From positions 1 to 36,617 of the forward strand of contig CALLWO010000170.1 in assembly GCA_938016355.1 (NCBI GenBank): 36,617 bases of DNA. The letters run 5' to 3'. The DNA comes from an uncultured Boseongicola sp. (GTDB lineage: Bacteria; Pseudomonadota; Alphaproteobacteria; Rhodobacterales; Rhodobacteraceae). A program made the position numbers and the translations under genes. Shown here in pieces: positions 16,566-20,464 of the stretch (its first letter is position 1; each line of letters starts with the position of its first letter). The notes under the pieces were generated by a model. The model was not told the DNA's origin, ran no database searches, and saw only the letters and a list, made by a program, of their open reading frames with translations.

Positions 16566-17219
16566 TTAACGCGTGGTTTCGGTCAAGCGACGTTCAACGT
16601 ATGTCGAAACATCCCCAATCATATGCTCCATATGTGGGTCTTCAAAGAAGTGCCCGGCGCCTTCGATCTCTGTATGAGTGATCGTGATGCCCTTTTGCTC
16701 ATGAAGCTTTTCAACCAGCGTGTGCGTATCGCGTGGCGGAGCCACGCGGTCGGCTGTGCCGTTAATAATGAGGCCGGAAGACGGGCAGGGCGCGAGAAAC
16801 GAAAAGTCGTACATGTTTGCAGGAGGAGAGACGCTGATAAAGCCCGTGATCTCAGGGCGGCGCATCAGCAACTGCATTCCGATCCACGCACCGAACGAGA
16901 AACCGGCGACCCAGCAATGTTTGGCATTCTGGTTCATTGATTGGAGGTAATCTAGCGCTGAAGCTGCGTCGCTCAGCTCGCCAACGCCTTGATCGTATTC
17001 ACCCTGACTACGGCCCACACCCCGGAAATTGAACCGAAGAACGGTGAAACCCATATTGTGAAACGCATAGTGCAGATTGTAGACGACGCGGTTGTTCATC
17101 GTTCCACCAAATTGGGGGTGGGGATGCAAAATGATCGCAATCGGTGCGTCTTTTGATTTTTGGGGGTGATACCGACCTTCCAGTCGCCCTTCGGGACCGG
17201 GAAAAATTACCTCAGGCAT
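16566..17219 (-). CDS. Alpha/beta hydrolase (COG2945-like)
   Basis: Product of 217 aa starting MPEVIFPGPEGRLEGRYHP. Visible motifs are IILHPHPQFGGTMNN (oxyanion region), LRFNFRGVGRSQGEYDQG, nucleophile elbow GFSFGAW (Ser), acid region INGTADRVAPP and a late histidine in EGAGHFFE, so a full Ser-Asp-His triad is likely. The substrate is unknown. The ORF track extends it by 90 codons, but that extension reads through the Irr-like palindrome and the iscR promoter region. I therefore start at MPEV, where AAGGA lies about 12 bases upstream. An in-frame ATG four codons earlier cannot be excluded. It is divergent from iscR. Confidence 0.88.
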   Translation of the reverse strand: MPEVIFPGPEGRLEGRYHPQKSKDAPIAIILHPHPQFGGTMNNRVVYNLHYAFHNMGFTVLRFNFRGVGRSQGEYDQGVGELSDAASALDYLQSMNQNAKHCWVAGFSFGAWIGMQLLMRRPEITGFISVSPPANMYDFSFLAPCPSSGLIINGTADRVAPPRDTHTLVEKLHEQKGITITHTEIEGAGHFFEDPHMEHMIGDVSTYVERRLTETTR

Positions 17220-17281
17220 TGCTTGCCACATTCCTTCTTTTGCCGTTTCCGCCAAATTCTTGACGGATTTGGTCAGAGTCT

Positions 17282-17296
17282 TTAGAAGCATTCTAA
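17282..17296. promoter_or_regulatory. Irr/ICE-like box upstream of the isc-suf operon
   Basis: Perfect dyad TTAGAA-GCA-TTCTAA. This fits the iron-control element recognised by the alphaproteobacterial haem-dependent regulator Irr (TTAGAA-N3-TTCTAA core). It sits about 85 bp upstream of iscR, between the divergent hydrolase and the Fe-S operon. It would repress Fe-S assembly genes when iron is low; this follows from known Irr biology and was not measured. Confidence 0.75.
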
Positions 17297-17326
17297 TTCG
17301 AGGGGAGTCGCCCCGAACGGACTGAG

Positions 17327-17357
17327 TTGACCTAAGCCGGACTGCTTGAAAGGTCAA
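17327..17357 (+). promoter_or_regulatory. iscR promoter region with a TTGACCT...AGGTCAA dyad
   Basis: Seven-base arms TTGACCT and AGGTCAA with a 17-base spacer, 23 bases upstream of the iscR ATG. TTGACC is also a good -35 hexamer, which would put the right arm over the -10 region. An autoregulatory IscR operator overlapping the promoter is a reasonable guess. Confidence 0.45.
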
Positions 17358-17379: not shown

Positions 17380-17841
17380 ATGAAGCTTAGCACCAAAGGC
17401 CGATATGCTATGGTTGCTTTGACAGATCTTGCCACTGTTTCTGACGGACGGCTCCTATCGCTCGCCGAAATCTCCAAACGACAGGACATTTCGCTGCCAT
17501 ATCTCGAGCAATTGTTTGTAAAACTTCGCCGCGCTGGGCTTGTCGAATCTGTTCGTGGGCCGGGTGGCGGCTATCGTTTGGCGAAATCGCCGTCCGACAT
17601 TCGCGCAAGCGAAATCTTGGGAGCTGTGGATGAGACCGTTTCTGCATTGCATACCGGAGCGGGTGCATCTGGTGGGTCTTCGGGGTCAAAGGCACAATCG
17701 TTGAACAACCGCCTTTGGGAAAGCTTGTCCGCGCATGTCTATGTTTTCCTACATCAGACGCGTTTGAGCGACATTGTCGGAAACGACCTTGCACCGTGTC
17801 CGGCTGTGCCTGCGCTGTTCACGATCGTGGACGAGCCTTGA
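17380..17841 (+). CDS. iscR: Rrf2-family Fe-S regulator IscR, without the usual cysteine ligands
   Basis: Transcription factor of 153 aa heading the Fe-S assembly operon. The winged-helix N-terminal half is typical: MKLSTKGRYAMVALTDLA, ISLPYLEQLFVKLRRAGLV, and the wing SVRGPGGGYRLA. In E. coli IscR three cysteines near residues 92-104 bind a [2Fe-2S] cluster. Here that loop reads ALHTGAGASGGSSGSKAQSL and has no cysteine. The only cysteine is Cys140 near the C terminus (DLAPCPAVP). This matches the unusual ligation reported for Rhodobacter IscR, so it probably still senses Fe-S status or iron. AAGGAAGG precedes the ATG. Its TGA overlaps the next ATG (TGATG). Confidence 0.93.
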   Translation: MKLSTKGRYAMVALTDLATVSDGRLLSLAEISKRQDISLPYLEQLFVKLRRAGLVESVRGPGGGYRLAKSPSDIRASEILGAVDETVSALHTGAGASGGSSGSKAQSLNNRLWESLSAHVYVFLHQTRLSDIVGNDLAPCPAVPALFTIVDEP

Positions 17842-18926
17842 TGCCAAAGGCGAATGCAATGCGCACTTATCTAGATTGGAACGCCACCGCGCCCCTTCGT
17901 GAGTCAGCGCAAGCTGCCATGATCGAAGCATTGGCAATCGTTGGCAATCCATCCTCAGTTCATGCGGAAGGTCGTGCTGCGCGTAGTATTGTCGAGCGCG
18001 CCCGTGGTTCGGTGGCGGAGCTGGTCGGATGCAAGGCGTCAGAAGTCGTGTTCACGTCCGGTGCGACCGAAAGCGCTTCAATATTGCGGGCTCTACCGAT
18101 TGCTTCCGATGTAATTGTTGATCAGACCGCCCACGATTGTCTTTGGGCGCATGCCAGATCTGCCAACGACAACACTGAGTCGATGTCCAGCACATTGGCG
18201 ATGGGTCTGGCAAACTCGGAGACCGGCGTCATATCGGCACCAGAAAGAGACGATGCTGGGTGGATCTACGGCGATACACGCAGCAAGTGGCTTCTTCTCG
18301 ATGTGGTCCAGGCCATTGGACGGGTCCCTTTCAGCTTTCATTGGTCGAACGCAGATTTCGCAATCATTTCCGCGCATAAGCTTGGGGGGCCAAAAGGTGC
18401 CGGAGCTTTGATCGTTCGAGAAGGTGTTGATATTGAACCAGTTTTGGCCGGTGGAGGCCAAGAGTTGGGACGCCGATCTGGCACCGAAAATGTAGCTGGT
18501 ATCGCCGGATTCGGAGCGGCATGTTCAGCGACGTTGCAAGACTTGAATGCAGGAAGATGGTCCGAAGTCGAAAAACTTAGAAATATTCTAGAAAGTGCAC
18601 TGGCGGCTGGCGAAAAAGAGACTATTTTTGTCGGGAAAGATTCTGAACGGCTGCCGAACACTTCTTGTTTCGTATTGCCCGGTTGGAAGGGCGAAACGCA
18701 AGTGATGCAAATGGACTTGTCTGGGTTTGCGGTTTCCAGCGGGTCAGCGTGTTCGAGCGGCAAGGTCAAAGTCCCGCGTGTTTTGCGAGCGATGGGTTTG
18801 GATGATCGAGAGGCAGAGTGCGCGCTTCGTGTGTCTTTGGGACCCTCGACGAGTGAAGATGATGTGCTGCGTTTCGCAGAAACGTGGCTTGAAAAAAGTA
18901 AAAAGGCCCGCGTACGCGCGGCGTGA
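17841..18926 (+). CDS. iscS: Cysteine desulfurase, IscS/NifS type
   Basis: PLP enzyme that takes sulfur from cysteine and passes it as persulfide to Fe-S scaffolds. The 361-aa product (shorter than E. coli IscS, 404 aa) begins [17 protein letters not shown]. It has FTSGATES, the PLP lysine in [13 protein letters not shown] (Lys180), [14 protein letters not shown], and the active-site cysteine in [11 protein letters not shown] (Cys304). It starts at the ATG overlapping the iscR stop. The longer ORF in the track overlaps iscR by 42 codons and is not family-like there. This is one of two desulfurases in the operon; the other is sufS. Confidence 0.94.
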
Positions 18927-18940
18927 AAGGAAGCACCGAA

Positions 18941-20464
18941 ATGGCAGCTTTGGACAACTCACAAGCCAAAGAAGGCGTTGATCAAGAGACGGTCGACGCG
19001 GTCCGTTCACTTTCCGGCAAGTATAAATATGGCTGGGAAACCGAAATCGAGATGGACTACGCGCCTAAAGGGCTGTCCGAAGACATAGTGCGCTTGATCT
19101 CCGAGAAAAATGGTGAGCCGGAGTGGATGCTGAATTGGCGTTTAGAAGCGTTTGAGCGTTGGTTGCAAATGGAAGAACCCGAATGGGCGATGGTTGATTA
19201 TCCGAAAATCGACTATCAGGAGCAATATTACTACGCCAAGCCAAAAAGTATGGAGACAAAGCCGAAGTCACTTGATGAAGTTGACCCTAAGCTTTTGGAA
19301 ACATATGCGAAACTCGGCATTCCTTTGAAAGAACAGATGATCCTTGCCGGCGTAGAAGGGGCAGAGGACGCCCCGGCGGAAGGGCGCAAAGTTGCTGTCG
19401 ACGCGGTCTTTGATTCGGTTTCAGTGGGAACAACGTTTCAGGCGGAGTTGCAAAAGGCAGGTGTAATTTTCTGCTCGATTTCAGAAGCTATCAAAGAGCA
19501 TCCGGAGTTGGTCAAAAAGTATCTTGGATCGGTTGTGCCGCAGTCCGATAACTATTTTGCGACACTGAATTCAGCGGTGTTTTCGGACGGTTCATTTGTA
19601 TATGTGCCGCCTGGCGTGCGCTGCCCGATGGAGCTGTCTACCTATTTTCGGATCAACGCTGAAAACACCGGCCAATTCGAGCGCACGCTCATTATCTGCG
19701 ATAATGACGCTTACGTTTCGTATCTGGAAGGTTGTACCGCTCCACAACGGGATACACACCAACTTCATGCCGCGGTTGTTGAGCTTGTGGTTATGGACGA
19801 TGCCGAGATTAAATACTCGACTGTCCAGAATTGGTATCCAGGCGACGAAAACGGCAAAGGTGGTATCTACAATTTCGTAACAAAGCGTGCCGATTGTCGC
19901 GGCGATCGATCTAAGGTGATGTGGACGCAGGTGGAAACCGGCTCAGCAGTCACTTGGAAATACCCGTCCTGCATTCTTCGTGGCGACAACAGCCAAGGCG
20001 AGTTTTATTCAATCGCCATTACCAACAATATGCAGCAAGCCGATACTGGCACCAAAATGGTGCATTTGGGCAAGAATACAAAGTCGCGGATCGTCTCGAA
20101 GGGTATCTCTGCCGGGAAAGCTCAGAACACCTATCGCGGCCTGGTCTCAATGCATCCTCGGGCCAAAAACAGCCGGAACTACACGCAATGCGATAGTCTT
20201 CTGATTGGGGATAAATGCGGGGCACATACGGTTCCCTATATTGAGGTGAAAAATAACTCCAGTCGCGTCGAACATGAGGCGACGACATCCAAAGTGGATG
20301 ATGACCAGCTCTTTTACTGCCGCCAGCGCGGCATGGATGAAGAAGAAGCCGTTGCGCTTGTTGTAAATGGCTTCTGCAAAGAAGTGCTTCAGGCGCTCCC
20401 AATGGAGTTTGCGATGGAAGCTCAACAGCTTGTGGCGATTTCACTTGAAGGTTCTGTGGGCTGA
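18941..20464 (+). CDS. sufB: Fe-S cluster assembly scaffold SufB
   Basis: Core of the SufBCD scaffold on which Fe-S clusters are built. The 507-aa product has family length. Landmarks are [20 protein letters not shown] near the N terminus, [19 protein letters not shown], and the beta-helix region with [23 protein letters not shown]. The C-terminal functional segment is [20 protein letters not shown], whose cysteine corresponds to the essential SufB cysteine. I start at ATG (MAALDNSQ) with AAAGGAA upstream; a GTG six codons earlier overlapping the iscS stop is possible. Confidence 0.96.

What the first reader, a model, noticed from the sequence alone, without database searches (positions are those of the whole stretch)
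17282..17357. Two different dyads in front of the Fe-S operon: an Irr-like box and a TTGACCT/AGGTCAA promoter dyad
TTAGAA-GCA-TTCTAA is a perfect match to the core of the Irr iron-control element. The second dyad has 7-base arms spaced so that they would cover -35 and -10. Together they suggest dual control of the operon by iron/haem (Irr) and by IscR itself.
Basis: partly seen in the sequence, partly recalled or inferred. Interest (0 to 1): 0.6.

Follow-up and report, generated by a model that had tools for sequence, protein, structure and literature searches.

The report
Irr and IscR sites at isc-suf
The DNA in front of this iron-sulphur gene cluster does carry a conserved iron-control (Irr) site, overlapping a promoter that also holds an IscR-like site; the second "dyad" is the promoter of the neighbouring gene on the other strand, and a second conserved Irr site lies hidden inside the coding sequence of iscS.

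Summary
Irr box (17282-17296, TTAGAAGCATTCTAA): real and conserved. Only two exact copies exist in the 2.66-Mb draft genome; the other precedes mbfA, a known Irr target. It recurs (at least 10/12) upstream of iscR in 81 of 115 family loci, with TTGAC exactly 22 bp upstream in 79 of 81. That gives a -35 (TTGACG 17260-17265), a 17-bp spacer and a -10 (TAGAAG 17283-17288) inside the box.

Second dyad (17327-17357): misread. The exact dyad occurs in only 2 loci. What is conserved (101 of 115) is a minus-strand promoter, TTGACS-N17-TAnnT, for the divergent hydrolase (P5 in R. sphaeroides).

Also missed: an Irr box inside iscS (18577-18591) and an IscR-like site (18620-18634), matching the P3 sites bound in R. 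sphaeroides gel shifts. In 66 of 91 iscS genes the box is kept by rare codons (AGA 66/66, CTA 66/66; about 2% elsewhere) although neighbouring amino acids vary.

Boxes occur in 52 of 60 loci from genomes with Irr, 0 of 10 without. Caveats: R. sphaeroides Irr did not bind P2 in vitro; Irr was not found in this 80%-complete draft.

The parts
17260..17278 (+). likely IscR box of promoter P2 (TTGACGGATTTGGTCAGAG), holding the -35 TTGACG at 17260-17265
   Evidence: TTGAC exactly 22 bp upstream of the Irr box in 79 of 81 loci; same relative position as the IscR box of R. sphaeroides P2
17282..17296 (+). Irr box TTAGAAGCATTCTAA, holding the P2 -10 TAGAAG at 17283-17288; start site expected near 17296
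   Evidence: exact dyad; at least 10/12 in 81 of 115 loci, no 11/12 match in 545,606 b of flanking sequence
   Evidence: TTGAC-N18-TAnnY on the minus strand in 101 of 115 loci, 0.0013 expected per locus; absent in the two loci without the hydrolase
16566..17219 (-). divergent alpha/beta-hydrolase-like gene (RSP_0444 position)
   Evidence: found divergent in 114 of 116 loci; family scan
17380..17841 (+). iscR, single-cysteine type with PCPAV
17841..18926 (+). iscS-type cysteine desulfurase
18577..18591 (+). Irr box TTAGAAATATTCTAG inside iscS (P3 Irr site)
   Evidence: identical to the R. sphaeroides P3 site bound by Irr; codons AGA and CTA fixed in 66 of 66 genes with the box
18620..18634 (+). 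IscR-like site GACTATTTTTGTCGG inside iscS (P3)
   Evidence: one base from the site in the R. sphaeroides fragment bound by IscR; Thr codon ACT 50 of 51 against 7.5% elsewhere
18923..20464 (+). sufB, first whole gene downstream of P3

Best explanation
This is the family-standard regulatory region of the Rhodobacteraceae isc-suf operon. Promoter P2 has an IscR box over its -35 and spacer and an Irr box over its -10 and start site, so either protein, when bound, would block RNA polymerase. Holo-IscR would repress when Fe-S clusters are plentiful; Irr, which in related bacteria acts when iron or haem is scarce, would brake the operon at low iron. A second promoter, P3, inside iscS carries the same two kinds of site in the opposite order and feeds the suf genes. 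Shown here by sequence: the sites, their geometry, their conservation, codon-level selection on the P3 sites, and absence of the boxes where Irr is absent. Inferred: which proteins bind, the start sites, and the direction of control in this organism.
For: Irr box rarity and company: 4 sites with at most 1 mismatch in 2.66 Mb, all at iron or Fe-S genes. Conservation upstream of iscR 81/115 with fixed 22-bp geometry 79/81, the same layout as the mapped R. sphaeroides P2. Intragenic box 66/91 with codons AGA 66/66 and CTA 66/66 against about 2% background, plus IscR-like site at fixed distance. Boxes in 52/60 loci with Irr and 0/10 without. Minus-strand promoter 101/115. In R. sphaeroides IscR binds and represses P2, and Irr and IscR bind P3.
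Against: Irr did not bind the iscR upstream region of R. sphaeroides in gel shifts, so Irr at P2 may be weak or indirect. Irr was not found in this draft genome, although the draft is only about 80% complete. Eight loci from genomes with Irr have neither box. Relatedness inflates the co-occurrence statistic; the tree-aware test has too few pairs.
Confidence: 0.82

Rival explanations
1. One reading: the iscR promoter lies in the TTGACCT/AGGTCAA dyad, which is an IscR operator, with the Irr box upstream of it.
For: The dyad is present with 7-base perfect arms.
Against: Literal dyad in 2 of 115 loci; the right arm is the conserved -35 and the left arm overlaps the -10 of a minus-strand promoter that follows the hydrolase gene; 4% of shuffles give such a repeat.
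Confidence: 0.04
2. The P2 TTAGAA...TTCTAA sequence is kept mainly as core promoter (-10 and start region), and Irr acts on the operon only at P3 inside iscS.
For: The -10 lies inside the box; R. sphaeroides Irr bound P3 but not P2.
Against: The right half TTCTAA, downstream of the -10, is as conserved as the left half among loci selected for the box (the selection biases this), and genomes without Irr lose the P2 box too.
Confidence: 0.12
3. The box inside iscS is a by-product of protein constraint, not a DNA site.
For: Arg is invariant at that position in all 91 genes.
Against: 66/66 AGA and 66/66 CTA where the box is kept against about 2% elsewhere; amino acids vary wherever the box allows (L/I/V/F; N/I/K/T/A/D; I/V/F/T/S); all 25 genes without the box keep Arg, 19 as CGC.
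Confidence: 0.01

Closest known systems
isc-suf operon of Rhodobacter sphaeroides, promoters P1-P5 (PMC6956336, PMC4618611; IscR and Irr boxes predicted by Rodionov et al. 2006, known here only through these papers)
   Same: Same gene order, single-Cys IscR, IscR box then Irr box at P2, Irr and IscR-like sites at P3 inside iscS, divergent P5 promoter
   Different: The P2 Irr dyad is perfect here; no start site or binding has been measured in this organism; conservation across the family and codon evidence are added here
Irr boxes (iron control elements) of mbfA and ccpA in R. sphaeroides (PMC3413700)
   Same: Same kind of box; the mbfA start lies within its box as expected for P2, and the ccpA start lies about 40 nt downstream of its box, similar to P3
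   Different: Those sites were shown to bind Irr; the R. sphaeroides iscR upstream region was not bound

Membership tests
Irr box (iron control element), 17282-17296 | TTAGAANNNTTCTAA-type palindrome | tested here: met
   12 of 12 specified bases
Irr box (iron control element), 17282-17296 | Placed at promoters of iron, haem or Fe-S genes and conserved at orthologues | tested here: met
   iscR 81/115 loci; same genome's mbfA and nfuA-like genes
Irr box (iron control element), 17282-17296 | Occurs together with an Irr protein across genomes | tested here: met
   52/60 with Irr, 0/10 without; about 4 independent changes of Irr presence only
Irr box (iron control element), 17282-17296 | An Irr protein in this genome | tested here: inconclusive
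   Not found in a draft about 80% complete
Irr box (iron control element), 17282-17296 | Binds Irr | not testable with these tools
   Needs a gel shift or footprint
Irr box inside iscS (R. sphaeroides P3 type), 18577-18591 | Identity with the bound R. sphaeroides site and conservation as DNA | tested here: met
   TTAGAAATATTCTAGA identical; codon test
IscR box of P2, 17260-17278 | Position -36 to -19, directly upstream of the Irr box | tested here: met
   79/81 loci with TTGAC 22 bp upstream of the box; R. sphaeroides layout
   2 of 115 loci
Single-cysteine IscR of Rhodobacteraceae | One Cys within a PCPAV motif | tested here: met
   R. sphaeroides Pro141-Cys-Pro-Ala-Val145; scores below the classical IscR model's cut-off

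The most novel reading that the evidence does not exclude
Across the Rhodobacteraceae iscS is a dual-use gene: its codons are held to encode both the protein and a two-site Irr/IscR operator of an internal promoter, kept or lost as the Irr wiring changes, while P2 and the divergent P5 form a conserved face-to-face promoter pair that may interfere with each other.
Probability: 0.6. Interest if true: 0.5.

Novelty: new member of a known kind. Interest (0 to 1): 0.42.

Why it matters
It settles which of the two dyads is regulatory, moves the IscR box to its likely place and explains the second dyad as a neighbour's promoter. The Irr and IscR-like sites inside iscS are an unusually clear case of transcription-factor sites held in a bacterial coding sequence through rare codons, seen in dozens of loci. 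They predict that Irr control of suf through P3, measured so far in R. sphaeroides, is widespread in the family, and that Irr control of P2 should be retested in a species with a perfect box.

Tried and rejected
An apparent second gene order (iscS divergent from iscR, Irr box before sufB) was an artefact: genome-search loci with minus-strand matches are not reoriented (seen, corrected). The R. sphaeroides genome was sought through its P1 motif TAGACGACCTTGTTGTT, which matched 88 of 397 family genomes because it lies in hydrolase coding sequence, and through GACTATTTCTGTCGG in the genus of the most similar locus found (0 of 2 genomes); so the exact R. sphaeroides P2 sequence was not seen. Rodionov 2006 is not held in the library. 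Six iscR-iscS loci of other alphaproteobacterial families show no box of at least 10/12, four of them from genomes with an above-cut-off Irr, so these boxes look specific to this family. A test of whether losses of the P2 and P3 boxes depend on each other was uninformative.

Full report
What is there. The window lies on a 36.6-kb contig of a Rhodobacteraceae-like draft genome (2.66 Mb, 255 contigs, about 80% complete). It carries iscR-iscS-sufB-(two ORFs)-sufC-sufD-(ORF)-sufS on the plus strand and a divergent alpha/beta-hydrolase-like gene starting at 17219 on the minus strand. IscR is the single-cysteine type with the PCPAV motif described in R. sphaeroides.

Irr box. TTAGAAGCATTCTAA is at 17282-17296. 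With at most one mismatch the pattern is expected 0.03 times in the window and occurs twice. In the whole draft it occurs four times, all at iron or Fe-S genes: mbfA (exact), iscR (exact), inside iscS, and about 60 bases before an nfuA-like scaffold gene. Among relatives it is present upstream of iscR in 81 of 115 loci, while 545,606 bases of the rest of the same loci hold no match at 11/12 or better.

The real plus-strand promoter. In 79 of 81 loci TTGAC lies exactly 22 bases before the box. This yields TTGACG, a 17-base spacer and TAGAAn, with the -10 inside the left half of the Irr box. In R. [quoted passage not shown] the geometry here is the same. Its core shares 10 of 15 bases with the IscR-like site of P3 (counted by eye on the two sequences).

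The second dyad. TTGACCT-N17-AGGTCAA occurs in this locus and in L055 only. Read on the minus strand, the same place holds TTGAC(C/G)-N17-TAnnT in 77 of 81 loci with the Irr box and 24 of 34 without it, against 0.0013 expected per locus. Both loci that lack the divergent hydrolase (L091, L116) lack it. In R. sphaeroides P5, on the opposite strand upstream of iscR, drives the corresponding gene RSP_0444. Here the -10 happens to be TAGGTC, whose complement GACCTA makes most of the dyad's left arm. P2 and P5 face each other, with start sites an estimated 19-46 bp apart across the family (26 bp here; start sites inferred, not mapped).

The hidden sites in iscS. TTAGAAATATTCTAGA at 18577 is identical to the R. 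sphaeroides P3 site; Irr bound that region in a gel shift. GACTATTTTTGTCGG at 18620 differs by one base from the P3 IscR-like site there, and IscR bound that fragment. In a codon alignment of 91 iscS genes, 66 keep the box. All 66 use AGA for an Arg and CTA for a Leu, codons used 2.0% and 1.6% of the time elsewhere in the same genes, while amino acids vary wherever the box tolerates it. The 25 genes without the box all keep the Arg, 19 of them as CGC. The four best columns for synonymous conservation in the gene are three of the box and one of the IscR-like site. At the latter, Thr is ACT in 50 of 51 against 7.5% elsewhere, and the site lies at the same distance from the box in all 55 genes that score at least 11/13.

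Link to Irr. With the NCBIfam Irr model (NF045678, curated cut-off), 52 of 60 loci from genomes with Irr have at least one box and 0 of 10 from genomes without it do, five of these being Paracoccus (Fisher 1.1e-7). Relatedness inflates that figure: Irr presence changes about 4 times on the IscR tree, and a tree-aware sign test has too few pairs to reach significance, although in no pairing did the boxes go the other way. The nfuA box behaves likewise: present (at least 10/12) in 13 of 15 other family genomes with Irr and in none of 3 without.

Mechanism. Most likely holo-IscR blocks P2 at the -35 and Irr blocks it at the -10, and P3 offers a second entry to the suf genes under the same two regulators with the sites in reverse order. 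In R. sphaeroides P2 is strongly controlled by IscR, and Irr has a repressing effect on P3-containing fusions under iron depletion, which fits Irr as a low-iron brake. Irr did not bind R. sphaeroides P2 in vitro, so direct Irr control of P2 remains inferred; the perfect dyad here is a better candidate. Irr itself was not found in this draft, which holds a Fur/Mur-like and a Zur-like protein. A missing contig is the likely reason, because nearly all close relatives have it, but this is not shown.

Novelty. The P2 arrangement and the P3 sites are known in R. sphaeroides, so this is a new member of a known kind. What I did not find in the papers held is the family-wide conservation of the sites inside iscS, the codon evidence, their absence where Irr is absent, and the conserved nfuA box. 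The library is incomplete, so this is not proof of novelty.

Noticed in passing
L033:1501-1515 (own genome C135:5332-5346); L140-L158: An Irr box (TTAGAANNNTTCCAA type) lies about 60 bases before an nfuA/NifU-like Fe-S scaffold gene, directly upstream of a TTGAC -35, in this genome and in 13 of 15 other family genomes with Irr, and in none of 3 without.
   Followed up: partly
whole draft genome G000: No Irr protein was found by the Fur-family or Irr models, although four good Irr boxes are present; the draft is about 80% complete.
   Followed up: partly
L043, L051, L063, L066, L085, L098, L116 (and L049, cut short): Loci from genomes with Irr that have neither the P2 nor the iscS box; in most of them iscS was not recognised next to iscR.
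   Followed up: no
window about 17040-17098: The R. sphaeroides P1 sites (Irr-like TAGAAGGCATAGTGC, IscR-like TAGACGACCTTGTTGTT) fall in hydrolase coding sequence; the second is exact in 88 of 397 family genomes, so its conservation is not independent evidence of an IscR site.
   Followed up: partly
window 17282-17357: P2 and the divergent P5 promoter face each other with start sites an estimated 19-46 bp apart across the family, so the two transcripts should overlap as antisense at their 5' ends.
   Followed up: partly
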